A stretch of DNA of 64,000 nucleotides from an uncultured Alphaproteobacteria bacterium (lineage in GTDB: Bacteria > Pseudomonadota > Alphaproteobacteria > Rhizobiales > Aestuariivirgaceae), in NCBI GenBank assembly GCA_937873445.1, contig CALMWF010000044.1, positions 1 through 64,000 on the forward strand, written 5' to 3'. The translations under genes and the position numbers were made by a program. The notes beneath the pieces were generated by a model. The model did not search any database, had not been told where the DNA came from, and worked only from the letters and a program-made list of their open reading frames with translations. Shown here piece by piece: positions 23,474 through 29,163 of the stretch (the stretch's first letter is position 1; each line of letters opens with the position of its first letter).

Positions 23474-24570
23474 TGTCGTCGTTCAAAGTGCAGGCGCCGG
23501 AACCCAAGCCCGGCATTCTTTCCATTCACCCCTATGTGCCCGGCAAGTCGGGCGCCAAGGGGCACAAGGTGCACAAGCTGTCGTCCAATGAATCGCCGCT
23601 GGGGGCCGCTCCCAGTGCATTGGCGGCGTTTCAGGCCGAGGCGGCAAAGCTGGCGCTCTATCCCGACGGTTCGGCGGCCCGGCTGCGTGAGGCCATTGCC
23701 CGACGCTTCGGCCTCAAGGCCGATCACATCGTGTGCGGGGCCGGTTCGGATGAACTGCTTCAGCTTCTTGCCCATGCCTATCTCGGCCCCGGTGATGAGG
23801 CGATCTATTCGCAATATGGTTTTCTGGTCTATCCCATCGCCATTGCCGCCAATGGGGCCACCGCCGTGGTGGCGCCGGAAAAGGATTTCACCGCTGACGT
23901 GGACGCCATCCTGGCGCGGGTGACGGCGAAGACCAAAATGGTCTTTCTCGCCAATCCCAACAATCCCACCGGCACCTATCTGCCGTTCAGCGCCATCAAG
24001 CGCCTGCATCAGGGTCTGCCCGCTCATGTGGTGCTGGTGCTGGACGCGGCCTATGCCGAATATGTGAAGCGCAATGACTATGAGGCGGGCATTGCACTGG
24101 TGGCGGATTCCAAGAATGTGGTGATGACCCGCACCTTTTCGAAAATTCACGGCCTTGCCGCTCTCCGCCTCGGCTGGGCCTATTGCCCGGAGGCCATTGC
24201 CGATGTGCTGAACCGCATCCGCGGACCCTTCAATGTTTCGGCCCCGGCCATTGCGGCGGGGGCCGCGGCCATGGAAGATCACGGCTTTGTCGAGCGCGCG
24301 GTTGTTCACAATGAGCGCTGGCTGGCCATTCTCGCCGCCGAGATCGAGAAGATCGGCCTGAAGGTGACACCGAGTGTCGGCAATTTCCTGCTCATTCATT
24401 TTCCGCCGGAGGACGGCGGGGCGGCGGCGGCGGACGCCTATCTCACCGATCGCGGCCTTATTCTGCGGCGCATGGACGCCTATGGCCTGCCCAATGCGCT
24501 GCGCCTTTCAGTGGGCAGCGAGGAGGCCAACCGGGCCGTGCTGGAAGCGCTGCGGGACTACTGGATATGA
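23473..24570 (+). CDS. hisC: Histidinol-phosphate / aromatic aminotransferase
   Basis: A 365-aa class I/II PLP enzyme. The internal lysine lies in [38 protein letters not shown] and [11 protein letters not shown] are family motifs. Annotated HisC by similarity, but located between chorismate mutase and tyrC, where rhizobial homologues act on aromatic amino acids as well as histidinol phosphate. ATG at 23473 overlaps the upstream stop; GTG 3 nt earlier is less likely. Stop overlaps tyrC (ATGA). Confidence 0.9.
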
Positions 24571-25490
24571 CTGTGATGTTTGAGCGCGTGGCGCTGATCG
24601 GGCTTGGTCTTATCGGCTCGTCCCTGTCGCATGTCATGCGGCGCGAGCGTCTGGCCCATCACATTGCCGGTCATGCGCGCAGTGCGGCAACGCTGGAGAA
24701 GGCAGGCGAACTGGGGCTGGCGGATTCACTTCACAGCACGGCAGCCGGGGCGGTAACGAATGCCGATCTGGTCATTTTGTGTGTGCCGGTGGGGGCGCTG
24801 GGCGCGGTGGCGCAGGAAATCGGTGCCATGCTCAAGCCCGGCGCCATTGTCACCGATGTGGGATCGGTCAAGGCGGCGGTGATCCGCGATGTGGCCCCGC
24901 ACATGCCGCCGGGCGTTCATTTCATTCCGGGCCATCCCATTGCCGGCACCGAACAGTCGGGCCCGGCCTCGGGCTTTGCCGAACTGTTCCAGAACCGCTG
25001 GTGCATTCTCACACCCCTGCCGGACAGTGATCCGCTCGCGGTCAGGACGCTTGAAGACTTCTGGCGGGCCTGCGGCTCCAATGTCGAGATGATGAGTGCC
25101 GAGCACCATGATCTGGTGCTGGCCATCACCAGCCATCTGCCCCATCTCATTGCCTACAACACGGTGGCAACGGCAGCCGACCTTGAGAAGGTGACCAATT
25201 CCGAGGTCATCAAATATTCGGCCGGCGGCTTTCGCGACTTCACCCGCATTGCCGCCTCCGACCCGGTGATGTGGCGCGACGTATTCCTCAACAACCGCGA
25301 TGCCGTGCTGGAAATGCTTGGCCGTTTTTCCGAGGATCTGTCAGCCCTGCAGCGCGCCATCCGCTGGGGCGATGGCGACAGCCTCTATGCCCTGTTCGAC
25401 CGGGCGCGGTCCATCCGCAAGAGCATCATTGCGGCGGGCCAGGAAACGCCCCTGCCCAACTTCGGGCGCAACCAGAAGCCGGAAGGCTGA
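24567..25490 (+). CDS. tyrC: Prephenate/arogenate dehydrogenase (cyclohexadienyl dehydrogenase)
   Basis: A 307-aa NAD(P)-dependent enzyme: Rossmann fingerprint [19 protein letters not shown] (~7-25), the catalytic [11 protein letters not shown], and the conserved [15 protein letters not shown] and FSAGG-like [17 protein letters not shown]. Converts prephenate or arogenate to hydroxyphenylpyruvate or tyrosine. Overlaps hisC; the ChaC-like gene follows after 1 nt, so it may also be co-transcribed. Confidence 0.92.
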
Positions 25491-25491
25491 C

Positions 25492-26016
25492 ATGACAGCC
25501 GACGGCAACCATTGGGTTTTTGCCTATGGTTCGCTGATGTGGCAGCCCGGCTTTACCTTCCTGCGGGCTGAACGTGCTAGGCTCTCCGGCTATCACCGTG
25601 CGCTCTGTGTGAAATCGGTAATCTATCGCGGCACAGCGGCAGAACCGGGGCTGGTGCTGGGTCTGTCACCGGGGGGCGAATGCCGGGGCCTGGGCTTTGA
25701 AGTGGCGGCTGACGGCTGGGCCGAGGTTCAGGATTACCTGCGGGCGCGCGAGCAGGTGACACGGGTCTATCGCGAGGTCATGGTGCCGGTGACGCTGGAC
25801 GGTCCGGCCGAACGGGTCGAGGCGCTGACCTTCGTGGCTGAACCCACGCATCCGCAATATGCGGGCGACCTTGCCGAAGATGCGGTGGTGCGGATGGTGC
25901 GTGAGGCGAAGGGGACAGCGGGCACGGCGCGCGACTATCTCATGACCACGCTCCAGCATCTGCGCAGCCTCAACATTGAGGATGCCGCACTGGAGCGGGT
26001 GGCCAGCCTTCTCTAG
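25492..26016 (+). CDS. ChaC-type glutathione-specific gamma-glutamylcyclotransferase
   Basis: A 174-aa GGCT-fold protein: WVFAYGSLMWQPGF (YGSL motif, ~8-21), KSVIYRGTAAEPGLVLGL, and the catalytic glutamate in LRAREQVTRVYRE. Expected to convert glutathione to 5-oxoproline and Cys-Gly. ATG 25492 is 1 nt after the tyrC stop; the upstream open frame overlaps tyrC. Convergent with the small LexA-controlled gene. Confidence 0.9.
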   Translation: MTADGNHWVFAYGSLMWQPGFTFLRAERARLSGYHRALCVKSVIYRGTAAEPGLVLGLSPGGECRGLGFEVAADGWAEVQDYLRAREQVTRVYREVMVPVTLDGPAERVEALTFVAEPTHPQYAGDLAEDAVVRMVREAKGTAGTARDYLMTTLQHLRSLNIEDAALERVASLL

Positions 26017-26035
26017 GCGCCGCCCTCTCTGATCC

Positions 26036-26509
26036 TCAGCCGAAGGCCAGTTCGATCTGCCGGGGCGCAGGCGGGGTGCGGCGCGGCGGGGTGCGGCGCG
26101 GCGCGGTGGCGAGCGGTGTGACGGTGGCCGCCTCATGGAAACCCGCCGGATGGTCCTTGGCCTCGGGGGCAAAGGCGCGCTGCAGGTCGGCCAGAATGGC
26201 GCTGGCCTCGGCCGGATTGCGGGCCAGAAGATGGACATGGATTTCATCAAGGTCGAGGCCGGAGAAAAGGGGCTGAACCGCCCCGAAGCCGGCCGGGACC
26301 AGGAAGCGGCCGAGAATCACGGCCTGCCTTCCGCCGCCGTCGCGGCGCACGCCGACATAGAGCGCGCCGGGCAAGGGCGGGCAGTTATTCGGCTCATAAA
26401 TGGAATGGATGTATTTGCGGCCCGAAGCCCCCTGCCAATACCAGAACCGGTCATGAAGACCGAGGTCGGGGGCGAGGTCGGCAGCGATGGGATGGCCCTG
26501 AAGGTTCAT
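26036..26509 (-). CDS. Small conserved alphaproteobacterial protein under predicted LexA control
   Basis: A 157-aa protein without a named domain I can assign. The N-terminal two thirds contain LHDRFWYWQGASGRKYIHSI, ALYVGVRRDGGGRQAVILGR and FSGLDLDEIHVHLLARNPAEA; the last ~35 residues are Arg/Pro-rich (APRRTPPRRTPPAPR) and probably disordered. ATG at 26509 is favoured over TTG 26545, because the promoter places the transcript start almost on the ATG. The upstream site combines TTGACG/TATCTT with two LexA boxes, so it should be DNA-damage inducible. Function unknown; a repair or checkpoint role is only suggested by regulation. Confidence 0.8.
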   Translation of the reverse strand: MNLQGHPIAADLAPDLGLHDRFWYWQGASGRKYIHSIYEPNNCPPLPGALYVGVRRDGGGRQAVILGRFLVPAGFGAVQPLFSGLDLDEIHVHLLARNPAEASAILADLQRAFAPEAKDHPAGFHEAATVTPLATAPRRTPPRRTPPAPRQIELAFG

Positions 26510-26551
26510 GGGAACGAAGATAGAACAGAACGGAATGTTCGTCAATCGTTC
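26510..26551 (-). promoter_or_regulatory. LexA-repressed promoter with two SOS boxes
   Basis: On the minus strand, TTGACG (26545-26540), a 17-nt spacer and TATCTT (26522-26517) form a near-consensus promoter. GTTC-N7-GTTC (26537-26551 read on the plus strand) covers the -35, and GAAC-N7-GAAC (26512-26526), its inverse, covers the -10. Both are exact matches to the alphaproteobacterial LexA site. Expected transcription start is at or next to the ATG at 26509, giving a leaderless mRNA. Confidence 0.8.
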
Positions 26552-26562
26552 TTTTTGCCGGA

Positions 26563-28368
26563 TCAGGAACAGAGGGCCGTGCCGCAGGACAGGCAGGTGG
26601 TGCAGCCTTCAGCCGCGGCAATGTCGGCGGAACCACAGGACGGGCAGCGGGTGCGCGCCGGTTCGTTCACCGGGGCGGTGAGAATGGCGCCCGTCACATC
26701 ATTGGGCCTGAAGGTGGTGCAGCCCTTGAGGCCGAGGCGGTAGGCTTCCGCATAGACATGGCGGAAGGCGGCAAAGGGCAGGTCGGCTGGCACATTGATG
26801 GTCTTGGAAATGGAACTGTCCACCTGCGGCTGAAGGGCGGCCTGCATGGCGAGATGATGGGCGGGGGTCAGATCATTGACGGTGACGAAGGAAGGCGGCA
26901 GGGGTGCATCCCCCTTCAGCCGCCGCCATTCCGCCACGGCATGGTCGGTCAGATGCTCGACCCGGAAGCTGCCATCGGAAAGCCGCACCCGGCGCTCGTG
27001 CTCCAGACTGAAAATGGGTTCAACGCCGCTGGAGACATTGCCGGCCAGAAGCGAGATGGTGCCGGTGGGGGCAATGGAGGTGAGAAGCCCGTTGCGCAGG
27101 CCGCTGCGGCGGATCATCCGGCGCAGATCCTCCGCCAGGCCCCGGCCATAGGCGGTGGCAAGATAGCGTTCCGCATCAAACAGCGGGAAGACGCCTTTTT
27201 CGACGGCAAGTTCGGTTGAGGCGGCGAGGGCCGCATGATTGATGGCGGCCATCCAGCGCGAGGCTGCCGCCGCCGCATCAGCCTGGCCATAGGTGAGGCC
27301 CAGCATGGCCAGTGCGTCAGCCAGGCCGGTCAGGCCAAGGCCCATGCGGCGCTTGGCCAGCGCCTCGGCACGCTGTTCGGCCAGCGGATAGCGCGATACA
27401 TCAATGATGTTGTCGAGCAGACGCACCGCCACGCCCGCGGCCTCGGCAAGGGCCGCTTCATCAAGGCTCGCCTCCGGCGTGAAGGGCTGGCGGACGAAGC
27501 GGGTGAGGTTGAGGGAGCCCAGCAGGCAGGCGCCATAGGGCGGCAGGGGCTGCTCGCCGCAGGGGTTGGTGCAGGAAATGGTCTCGCAATAGGAAAGCGG
27601 GTTTTGCGCATTCACCCGGTCGATGAAAATGACGCCTGGTTCGGCCGCCTCATAGGTGGCGCGCATGATGGCCTGCCACAGCCCGGCCGCCTTGACGGTG
27701 CGGAAAGTCGCGCCGCCGAAGGTCAAGGGCCAGTCGGCGTCGGCGGCCACGGCTGCCATGAAGGCATCGGTCACCAGCACCGACATGTTGAAGTTGCGCA
27801 GGCGCTCGCCCTTGCGCTTGGCGGCGATGAAGTCCTCGATGTCGGGATGGTCGCAGCGCAGGGTGGCCATCATGGCGCCGCGCCGGGCGCCCGCTGCCAT
27901 GATGGTGCGGCACATGGCGTCCCACACCTCCATGAAGCTCACGGGGCCGGAGGCTTCCGCCCCCGTGCCATGCACCAGCGCACCCCTGGGGCGCAGGGTG
28001 GAAAAATCATGGCCGATGCCGCCGCCCTGCTGCAGGGTCTGGGCCGCCTCCTTGAGGGCGGTGAAAATGCCGGCGGTCGAATCCTCGATTGTTCCCATGA
28101 CAAAGCAGTTGAACAGGGTGACGGCGCGGCCGGTGCCCGCCCCGGCCAGAATGCGCCCCGCCGGCAGAAAGCGCAGATCGGCCAGGAGTTCACCAAAAAC
28201 CTGTTGCCAGTGGCCGCGGCGTGCGGGTTCCTCCTGGCTGGCGGCGGCGCGGGCCACGCGGGCCAGCGTGTCGGACAGGGATGTCTCATTGCCCTCGGAC
28301 CAGCGGTATTTCATCTCCCAAATGGTGTGGGAAATGGCGGGCAGCGGCGGCAGGGTGGGCGCGGGCAT
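26563..28368 (-). CDS. nrdJ: Adenosylcobalamin-dependent (class II) ribonucleoside-diphosphate reductase
   Basis: A 601-aa reductase reducing ribonucleotides with B12 chemistry. Motifs: FLPAGRILAGAGTGRAVTLFNCFV (first active-site Cys), GGGIGHDFSTLRP, the radical-site loop CTNPCGEQPLPPYGACLLGS, and GLGLTGLADAL. The C-terminus ends in CPSC...CTTCLSCGTALC, giving Cys pairs for thioredoxin-type re-reduction. Shorter than most NrdJ proteins (over 700 aa), lacking an ATP-cone. ATG at 28368 used; an ATG 39 nt upstream is open. No cobalamin riboswitch is seen. Its stop lies 12 nt from the SOS boxes. Confidence 0.9.
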   Translation of the reverse strand: MPAPTLPPLPAISHTIWEMKYRWSEGNETSLSDTLARVARAAASQEEPARRGHWQQVFGELLADLRFLPAGRILAGAGTGRAVTLFNCFVMGTIEDSTAGIFTALKEAAQTLQQGGGIGHDFSTLRPRGALVHGTGAEASGPVSFMEVWDAMCRTIMAAGARRGAMMATLRCDHPDIEDFIAAKRKGERLRNFNMSVLVTDAFMAAVAADADWPLTFGGATFRTVKAAGLWQAIMRATYEAAEPGVIFIDRVNAQNPLSYCETISCTNPCGEQPLPPYGACLLGSLNLTRFVRQPFTPEASLDEAALAEAAGVAVRLLDNIIDVSRYPLAEQRAEALAKRRMGLGLTGLADALAMLGLTYGQADAAAAASRWMAAINHAALAASTELAVEKGVFPLFDAERYLATAYGRGLAEDLRRMIRRSGLRNGLLTSIAPTGTISLLAGNVSSGVEPIFSLEHERRVRLSDGSFRVEHLTDHAVAEWRRLKGDAPLPPSFVTVNDLTPAHHLAMQAALQPQVDSSISKTINVPADLPFAAFRHVYAEAYRLGLKGCTTFRPNDVTGAILTAPVNEPARTRCPSCGSADIAAAEGCTTCLSCGTALCS

Positions 28369-28416
28369 GGCCCGACCATACCCGCAACGGACCAGCGAGT
28401 CGATCACATGTTCTTG

Positions 28417-29163
28417 TTATGTTTTGGTGGGTTCGGGGGGGCGCCAGCGCTGGCGCCCCTCGGCCACCAGGGCTTGGGTGGTGGTTTCAATGGCCGCTTC
28501 CAGCCGGGATTGAAATTCCCGGCGCGGCAGACCGGGCGGAATGGGCGGCAGAAATTCCACCACGATCACCCCGGGGTGGCGGAGGAATTTGCGGCGCGGC
28601 CAGAACAGCCCGGCATTCAGGCCAAAGGGCACGCAGGGCACATCGAGCGCGCCATAAAGGGCAGCCGCCCCCGGCTTGTAGTCGGGCGGATCATCGGGGG
28701 CGCGGCGGGTGCCTTCGGGCATGATGATGATCTGGCGGCCGGTGGCGGCCTCCTCCCTGGCGCGGGCCACCAGACTGCGCAGGGCGGTGGAACCGGCGCT
28801 GCGCTCCACCGCGATCATGCGAAGTTTGCGGATATACCAGCCGAACACCGGAATGAGGGTCAGTTCCTTCTTCAGCACCATGGCCGGATCATCAAACAGG
28901 GTGAGAAGGGCAAAGGTCTCCCACAGCGACTGGTGCTTGCCCGCCACCAGAAGCGGGCCCTTGGGAACATTTTCCAGACCGCGCACCTCCATGCTGGTGC
29001 CGGCCACCACGCGCTGTTCCCACAGCAGCACCCGGCACAGCCCCTGCATGGCCTTGACGGCGGTGGCGTGGGAGACGGGCAGCAACACCAGCCCCGCCAG
29101 AAACAGCACCACCAGGGTGACATAGAACAGGATGTTGAACAGCAGCGAGCGCAGGATCGTCAC
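28417..29163 (-). CDS. plsC: 1-acyl-sn-glycerol-3-phosphate acyltransferase
   Basis: A 248-aa membrane-bound acyltransferase making phosphatidic acid. One N-terminal membrane helix (~7-29) precedes the catalytic box VAGKHQSLWETF (H-x4-E instead of the usual H-x4-D), then IPVFGWYIR, IIIMPEGTRRAP (EGTR box) and CVPFGLNAGLFW. Start GTG at 29163 overlaps the ftsX stop (GTGA). Last gene of ftsE-ftsX-plsC, a common rhizobial order. Confidence 0.92.
   Translation of the reverse strand: MTILRSLLFNILFYVTLVVLFLAGLVLLPVSHATAVKAMQGLCRVLLWEQRVVAGTSMEVRGLENVPKGPLLVAGKHQSLWETFALLTLFDDPAMVLKKELTLIPVFGWYIRKLRMIAVERSAGSTALRSLVARAREEAATGRQIIIMPEGTRRAPDDPPDYKPGAAALYGALDVPCVPFGLNAGLFWPRRKFLRHPGVIVVEFLPPIPPGLPRREFQSRLEAAIETTTQALVAEGRQRWRPPEPTKT

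What the first reader, a model, noticed from the sequence alone, without database searches (positions are those of the whole stretch)
26510..26551. Small conserved gene with a textbook double-LexA-box promoter, probably leaderless
TTGACG-N17-TATCTT is overlapped by GTTC-N7-GTTC at the -35 and GAAC-N7-GAAC at the -10, both exact alphaproteobacterial SOS boxes in inverted arrangement. The predicted start falls at the ATG. The 157-aa product has no assigned domain, so this may be an uncharacterised DNA-damage-response protein.
Basis: partly seen in the sequence, partly recalled or inferred. Interest (0 to 1): 0.65.

Follow-up and report, generated by a model that had tools for sequence, protein, structure and literature searches.

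The report
SOS-switched dead-nuclease-like protein family
A small gene, apparently switched on by DNA damage from a promoter whose off-switch sits right against its start codon, encodes a disarmed relative of DNA-cutting GIY-YIG enzymes, and relatives with the same promoter design recur across one large order of bacteria.

Summary
The promoter is real: on the minus strand TTGACG-N17-TATCTT (26545-26517) is overlapped by two exact alphaproteobacterial LexA boxes; the -10 box ends 2 nt before the ATG at 26509. That box is conserved: 56 of 75 named loci have it (17 of the 19 without are Hyphomicrobium-type), and 65 of 89 order-wide loci have an exact box upstream (reversed motif 0 of 89). The ATG lies 1-2 nt after the box in 44 of 56, so a leaderless SOS transcript is the usual design. 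The second box is not general (7 of 56). The 157-aa product hits no Pfam or NCBIfam family, but profile comparison and, more weakly, two models place it in the GIY-YIG superfamily, with the catalytic residues lost (0 of 159 rows keep three of four). Tails of 22 of 55 relatives carry a loosely defined beta-clamp-like motif (1 of 233 flank ORFs), here QIELAF; the exact consensus QLxLF occurs in none. Best reading: a LexA-induced, catalytically dead GIY-YIG protein acting at damaged DNA, in this clade perhaps docked on the clamp. Function is inferred; nothing was tested at the bench.

The parts
26036..26509 (-). 157-aa coding sequence, ATG at 26509; LexA-box-controlled degenerate GIY-YIG protein
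   Evidence: match in 58 of 69 genomes of the family and in 149 of 249 of the order; no Pfam/NCBIfam hit
26512..26526 (-). proximal LexA box GTTC-N7-GTTC over the -10, ending 2 nt before the ATG
   Evidence: box in 56 of 75 named loci and 65 of 89 order loci
26537..26551 (-). distal LexA box (GAAC-N7-GAAC on this strand) containing the -35, opposite orientation
   Evidence: the same arrangement in the nearest relative L051; a second box in 7 of 56 boxed named loci
26540..26545 (-). -35 hexamer TTGACG
26517..26522 (-). -10 hexamer TATCTT, inside the proximal box
26509..26510 (-). predicted transcription start, 0-1 nt leader (inferred from the -10 spacing)
   Evidence: sequence; ATG gap 1-2 nt in 44 of 56 boxed named loci
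26153..26452 (-). residues 20-119: degenerate GIY-YIG domain
   Evidence: hhalign 98.5%, controls at most 0.8%; VIA-align matches
26042..26059 (-). C-terminal QIELAF (residues 151-156), beta-clamp-binding-like motif (loose class only)
   Evidence: loose motif class in 22 of 55 relatives against 1 of 233 flank ORFs
26563..28407 (-). upstream neighbour nrdJ (B12-dependent ribonucleotide reductase); 53 bp lie between its stop and the ATG
   Evidence: TIGR02504 E 2.4e-164; nrdJ-like sequence in the flank of 62 of 75 named loci
28417..29163 (-). plsC-like acyltransferase upstream of nrdJ; directly before the gene in some relatives (L159, L163)
   Evidence: PF01553 E 4.5e-17
25300..26016 (+). convergent downstream neighbour, ChaC-like gamma-glutamyl cyclotransferase (ORF limits as listed; the true start is probably later)
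   Evidence: PF04752 E 2e-39; ChaC-like sequence in the flank of 52 of 75 named loci

Best explanation
The gene is a widespread SOS gene of this bacterial order. LexA bound to GTTC-N7-GTTC covers the -10 element and the start point; when LexA is cleaved after DNA damage, RNA polymerase starts at or 1 nt before the ATG and makes a leaderless mRNA (supported by conservation, not measured). The product is a small GIY-YIG-type protein that has lost the nuclease residues (supported by profile, residue counts and, more weakly, models), so it most likely binds DNA or a repair protein rather than cutting. In the window's clade its flexible tail carries a beta-clamp-binding-like motif, so I infer that it is recruited to the sliding clamp at stalled forks, where it would modulate access of polymerases or nucleases, and that in relatives ending in -AA it is cleared quickly by Clp proteases. 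The clamp and degron steps are inference.
For: Exact boxes on a promoter. The same box type lies at lexA in this genome and, by my reading of translations, at recA, recN, ssb, comM, radA, a DinB-type polymerase and an exonuclease III. Box conservation: 56 of 75 named, 65 of 89 order-wide, control 0 of 89. ATG 1-2 nt after the box in 44 of 56 and within 3 nt in 33 of 89 loci from 14 of 39 groups. GIY-YIG: hhalign 98.5%, E 3.8e-15; one reversed and 12 column-shuffled controls at most 0.8%; GIY-YIG chains head the VIA-align lists of two models (2lwf Z 7.2, rmsd 3.4 over 90; 2lwf Z 6.9, rmsd 2.5 over 80, and UvrC N-domain 1yd4 Z 5.4, rmsd 2.5 over 70; that the 2lwf domain is GIY-YIG is recalled). 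Catalytic residues: 0 of 159 rows keep three of four. Tail: QLxL[FL] in 9 of 55 against 0 of 233 flank ORFs; broad class 22 of 55 against 1 of 233; AA end 35 of 55 against 1 of 233. The genome's own DinB-type polymerase has QGDLF 58 residues before its end; that this is its clamp motif is inferred.
Against: No expression, binding or phenotype data. All 17 Hyphomicrobium-type homologues lack an exact box although nrdJ-like sequence lies in the flank of all 17. The exact consensus QLxLF is in 0 of 55 tails: all 9 strict matches have L at position 5. The broad clamp regex was set after seeing the tails; related sequences are not independent; the tails printed for most order-wide homologues are short and without the motif. 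The window protein itself ends ELAFG, not AA. Foldseek alone found no match with E under 0.001, Z values of 4 to 7 can arise from common arrangements, and one of the R.Eco29kI rows has rmsd 11.7. Pfam GIY-YIG was reached only by distant relatives and below its cut-off; 0 of 73 members of A2 hit it. The comparison set A3 was chosen: 4 of the 5 non-own hits, the one without the catalytic pattern (L142) left out.
Confidence: 0.6

Rival explanations
1. SOS-regulated but not clamp-linked: the dead GIY-YIG domain is a DNA-binding or UvrC-competing regulator of nucleotide excision repair, and the tail motifs are a clade-specific accident.
For: The core domain, not the tail, is what the order shares; the UvrC N-domain is among the best fold matches of the second model; no tail has the exact QLxLF.
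Against: Clamp-like motifs in several different sequence contexts exceed shuffles (mean 0.84, maximum 5 in 2000) and flank ORFs (1 of 233), though the class was set after looking.
Confidence: 0.27
2. It is still an active nuclease with a rearranged active site, an SOS endonuclease in the manner of Cho.
For: GIY-YIG ancestry; the GIY Tyr is kept in 55 of 72 clade members; a Hyphomicrobium-type paralogue (L235) with a LexA box keeps an R-H-E-PPLN pattern.
Against: The second Tyr, the Arg and the His are absent in 72 of 72 clade rows, and three of four residues are kept in 0 of 159 rows (the loop around Arg and His is hard to align).
Confidence: 0.08
3. A damage checkpoint protein (inhibitor of replication or cell division, as SidA or DidA work) built on a GIY-YIG scaffold.
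For: SOS control, and a short-lived-looking C-terminus in relatives; a clamp motif would suit replication arrest.
Against: Nothing found here speaks for a division target; SidA and DidA are recalled as small membrane proteins, unlike this one.
Confidence: 0.15
4. The boxes are chance and the gene is simply cotranscribed with nrdJ.
For: Only 53 bp separate it from the nrdJ stop; 49 exact sites against 25 in the reversed control show a high background.
Against: 65 of 89 against 0 of 89 control; the box stays in L159 and L163, where plsC and not nrdJ precedes the gene.
Confidence: 0.02

Closest known systems
GIY-YIG superfamily (UvrC N-terminal domain, R.Eco29kI, Arabidopsis glutaredoxin N-domain 2lwf; Pfam PF01541)
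   Same: profile homology over about 100 residues to alphaproteobacterial GIY-YIG proteins, with which it also shares an N-terminal W-G-SG-Y stretch; similar predicted fold
   Different: second Tyr, Arg and His lost and Glu mostly lost; conserved DEIHVHLLA strand; single small domain with a clamp-like tail in one clade
Cho, the SOS-induced UvrC-like nuclease of E. coli (recalled)
   Same: GIY-YIG domain under SOS control
   Different: Cho is an active nuclease of the UvrC kind; this family lacks the catalytic set and no UvrC domain was hit
Alphaproteobacterial LexA regulon (GTTC-N7-GTTC; PMC8565304 and PMC12700426, passages seen)
   Same: exact operator, on the promoter
   Different: operator ends 1-2 nt before the ATG, so the transcript should be leaderless; the family was not noticed in the paper listings and passages seen
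Beta-clamp-binding proteins (weak C-terminal consensus Q-L-x-L-F; PMC4549789, passages seen)
   Same: C-terminal motif such as QLELL, QIDLF, QVSLPLF in relatives
   Different: exact QLxLF in none of 55; motif only in part of the family; not a polymerase, ligase or transposase; binding untested
GIY-YIG domain-containing exonuclease under LexA-like motifs in Bacteroidetes (PMC8565304, one passage)
   Same: a GIY-YIG protein listed as possibly SOS-controlled
   Different: described there as COG0847, related to the polymerase III proofreading subunit; another phylum and another protein

Membership tests
Alphaproteobacterial LexA (SOS) regulon | exact GTTC-N7-GTTC overlapping the promoter | tested here: met
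Alphaproteobacterial LexA (SOS) regulon | box conserved upstream of orthologues | tested here: met
   56 of 75 named; 65 of 89 order-wide, control 0 of 89; absent in 17 Hyphomicrobium-type loci
Alphaproteobacterial LexA (SOS) regulon | the genome has LexA and the same box at lexA | tested here: met
   PF01726 hit at G000:C31:55248-55433 beside the box at C31:55480-55494
Alphaproteobacterial LexA (SOS) regulon | LexA binding and damage induction | not testable with these tools
   needs gel shift and RNA data
Leaderless mRNA | 5' end at the start codon | not testable with these tools
   only spacing and conservation
GIY-YIG superfamily (by descent) | profile homology to GIY-YIG proteins | tested here: met
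   98.5%, E 3.8e-15, controls at most 0.8%; comparison set A3 is 4 chosen sequences, of which 3 reach Pfam GIY-YIG models, all below the cut-off
GIY-YIG superfamily (by descent) | Pfam PF01541 above its cut-off | tested here: not met
   0 of 73 members match PF01541
GIY-YIG superfamily (by descent) | fold match | tested here: inconclusive
   top VIA-align rows are GIY-YIG in two models, best Z 7.2 and 6.9, under 8; Foldseek E values not significant
GIY-YIG nuclease (active) | catalytic Tyr-Arg-His-Glu set | tested here: not met
   0 of 72 clade rows and 0 of 87 order rows keep three of four
UvrC / Cho | UvrC-type domains | tested here: not met
   no Pfam or NCBIfam family at E up to 1
Beta-clamp-binding proteins | Q-L-x-L-F-type motif at the C-terminus | tested here: inconclusive
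   window: QIELAF, loose class only; QLxL[FL] in 9 of 55 relatives, all with L at position 5
Beta-clamp-binding proteins | binding to DnaN | not testable with these tools
   only single chains could be predicted
Clp substrates with an ssrA-like end | C-terminal -AA | tested here: not met
   window protein ends ELAFG; 35 of 55 relatives end in AA

The most novel reading that the evidence does not exclude
A new class of SOS effector: an order-wide family of pseudo-nucleases, descended from GIY-YIG enzymes, made from a leaderless message whose LexA operator abuts the start codon, docked on the sliding clamp and in many species removed through a built-in ssrA-like end, acting as a timed fork-protection or polymerase-access switch.
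Probability: 0.33. Interest if true: 0.78.

Novelty: new variant of a known kind. Interest (0 to 1): 0.6.

Why it matters
It would add a widespread SOS gene (match in 149 of 249 genomes of the order) that the family libraries used here do not name, and show a nuclease fold turned into a non-cutting damage-response protein. It also gives a natural series of promoters in which one LexA operator is kept while the leader is absent or about 24 nt long with an AGGAG-like stretch before the ATG, so the effect of leaderless translation during DNA damage becomes directly testable.

Tried and rejected
Phage, plasmid or defence origin: no tblastn match in plasmids or phages, no relative in viral contigs, no PADLOC model for 4 members, only one weak PHROG (E 0.33, for L105) among the same 4. 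Chance boxes: rejected by conservation. TTG start at 26545 (169-aa ORF): rejected, because it lies inside the -35. Sequence search of solved structures with the family profile: 0 matches. Foldseek alone gave nothing significant. Class-wide profile searches found 6 of 385 genomes each time, the own genome and one other of its order among them; only up to 10 candidates per genome were scored, so 'rare outside the order' is a first impression. A metal site of His35/Cys43/His91/His93 was considered and dropped, because L124 and L125 lack the first two. A link to nrdJ function: no evidence beyond neighbourhood.

Not found in print: the listings of searches (20 of 60 papers listed; 20 of 32 listed) showed no paper that I recognised as describing this family; I did not read those papers through. 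Most subscription papers, and the 2004 comparative LexA study that I tried by a recalled DOI, are not held.

Full report
The observation. On the minus strand the sequence before the gene reads GAACGATTGACGAACATTCCGTTCTGTTCTATCTTCGTTCCC-ATG. TTGACG and TATCTT are 17 bases apart (26545-26517); the promoter scan finds this one site in 401 bases against 0.1 expected. GTTCTATCTTCGTTC (26512-26526) contains the -10, and GAACGATTGACGAAC (26537-26551) contains the -35. GTTC-N7-GTTC is the published alphaproteobacterial LexA motif (PMC8565304 and PMC12700426, passages seen). Single exact sites are not rare: 5 in the window against 1.04 expected, and 49 in the 2.58-Mb genome against 25 for the reversed pattern (the five sites of the window appear twice because contigs C42 and C44 overlap). 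So the case rests on context and conservation.

The box in this genome. The one LexA DNA-binding-domain hit lies next to an exact box. By reading translations (names assigned by me from recall, not by HMM) other boxes lie before or at the start of recA, recN, ssb, comM, radA, a DinB-type polymerase and an exonuclease III. I fetched 20 stretches covering 22 of the 49 sites; several of those sites lie inside long open frames and look like background.

Conservation. The protein has a match in 58 of 69 genomes of its family. All 30 loci fetched by that search, the best of 59 matches (one of them the duplicate contig of the own genome), have an exact box near the start. The named collection gave 75 loci (Aestuariivirga, Anderseniella, Taklimakanibacter, Hyphomicrobium, Alsobacter and many metagenome bins; a number are the same genomes as). 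Of these 75, 56 have the box; of the other 19, 17 are the Hyphomicrobium-type set, L085 is cut off at its 5' end, and L118 has no exact box and no clear start. Across the order, 149 of 249 genomes have a match, in 67 of 111 genera. I examined 89 loci: 29 new loci and 60 stretches that I picked to spread over genera; these overlap in part with the named set. 65 of 89 have an exact box within 300 bases upstream of the matched domain; the reversed motif occurs in 0 of 89. In one search, 61 are in the forward orientation and 4 in the reverse only (some of those may be chance), and 2 of the 89 are cut off; 2 are second paralogues (L235 with a box, L236 without).

Leaderless geometry. The ATG follows the box by 2 nt in 38 and by 1 nt in 6 of the 56 boxed named loci; TTGAC occurs in the 24 nt upstream of the box in 48 of 56, and begins 18-20 nt upstream of it in 46, which gives a spacer of about 17 to the TATNTT inside the box. 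Order-wide, 33 of 89 loci, in 14 of 39 groups (37 families and two paralogue labels), have the ATG within 3 nt. The window gene has no alternative in-frame start before its conserved motif. Other relatives, such as the Anderseniella group, keep the same box but have the ATG 24-25 nt later behind an AGGAG-like stretch. In Caulobacter 375 mRNAs are leaderless and are translated about as well as others (PMC4117421, passages seen), so the design is plausible in this class. It remains an inference until 5' ends are mapped.

The second box. It recurs in 7 of the 56 boxed named loci: in L051 in the opposite orientation as in the window, in the other six in the same orientation as the first box. It lies on the -35 or directly upstream of it (L053, L056). 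It is an add-on, not the conserved element.

The protein. No Pfam or NCBIfam family matches it, and 0 of 73 aligned members match GIY-YIG in Pfam. Of 10 homologues scanned on their own, one distant class member (L128) reaches PF01541, at E 0.0077, below the cut-off. Using it as query reached 5 other places besides itself: the own gene (twice, through the duplicate contig) and four more. From these I built A3: the query and three hits (L144, L145, L146) that show GIY, YIG, Arg, His and Glu in order; the remaining hit, L142, which lacks most of that pattern, was left out. The 73-row family profile against A3 gives 98.5% and E 3.8e-15 over 103 columns; the first 29-row alignment gives 97.1%; one reversed and 12 column-shuffled controls reach at most 0.8%. 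AlphaFold models of the window protein (mean pLDDT 71; domain blocks 84-91 apart from a loop at 56) and of a Hyphomicrobium homologue (75) both have GIY-YIG chains at the head of the VIA-align list: 2lwf Z 7.2 (rmsd 3.4, 90 aligned), then R.Eco29kI 4.5 (rmsd 11.7, 101 aligned) and 4.3 (rmsd 3.4, 95 aligned); 2lwf 6.9 (2.5, 80), UvrC N-domains 5.4 and 5.3 (2.5, 70) and 4.5 (2.6, 71), followed by an unrelated chain at 3.9. Z under 8 alone would not suffice, and Foldseek E values were not significant; the sequence profile carries the claim. On a joint alignment the second Tyr, the Arg and the His are absent in 72 of 72 clade rows and the Glu is kept in 17; in 87 order rows they are kept in 1, 5, 1 and 22; 0 of these 159 rows keep three of the four (some genes are in both sets, and the loop with Arg and His is hard to align). 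So it is a member by descent, not a working nuclease by its residues.

The tail. Many relatives end in motifs like QLELLAA, QIDLFGRASA, QVDLF or QVSLPLFAGLAA; the window protein ends RQIELAFG. The published weak consensus is QLxLF (PMC4549789, passages seen). Allowing F or L at the last place, it occurs in 9 of 55 non-Hyphomicrobium sequences against 0 of 233 flank ORFs, but all 9 have L, so the exact consensus is in 0 of 55. A broad class that I set after looking occurs in 22 of 55 against 1 of 233 (shuffle mean 0.84, maximum 5 of 2000). Several of the hits are close relatives, and the flank ORFs (150 aa or more) were picked mechanically, not checked as genes. The DinB-type polymerase of the same genome carries QGDLF 58 residues before its end. 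35 of 55 end in AA against 1 of 233; 31 of 87 order-wide homologues do too. The window protein does not, so the degron idea applies to relatives only.

Neighbourhood. In the fetched flanks of the 75 named loci, nrdJ-like sequence is found in 62 and ChaC-like in 52; all 17 Hyphomicrobium-type loci have nrdJ. Where plsC and not nrdJ precedes the gene (L159, L163) the box is still there. The gene is therefore probably regulated on its own, with possible read-through from nrdJ.

Judgement. SOS control about 0.95 likely; leaderless about 0.85; dead GIY-YIG relative about 0.9; clamp docking of this protein about 0.45.

Noticed in passing
window 24539-28009 (contigs C42 and C44 of G000): Contig C42 (49,464 bases) repeats part of the window's contig C44 at an offset of 15; a 3,471-base stretch is identical, so the assembly is redundant there.
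   Followed up: partly
L235 (G569, Hyphomicrobium-type family): A second GIY-YIG paralogue with a better kept nuclease pattern (FIG, R, H, E, PPLN) also has an exact LexA box 49 nt before its ATG, whereas the main homologues sampled from that family (8 loci) lack a box: control may have moved between paralogues.
   Followed up: partly
L102-L117, L119: Hyphomicrobium-type homologues keep nrdJ nearby but lack the exact box and the long tail; many have an N-terminal extension like MSAEIIQLAEFRARR.
   Followed up: partly
L093-L095, L099, L100: Anderseniella-type loci keep the box but have a leader of about 24 nt with an AGGAG-like stretch: a natural leaderless-to-leadered switch under the same operator.
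   Followed up: partly
L003 (G000:C8:44921-46935): An exact LexA-type box lies between two divergent open frames, an EamA-like transporter and a radical-SAM-like protein (names by eye).
   Followed up: no
   Followed up: no
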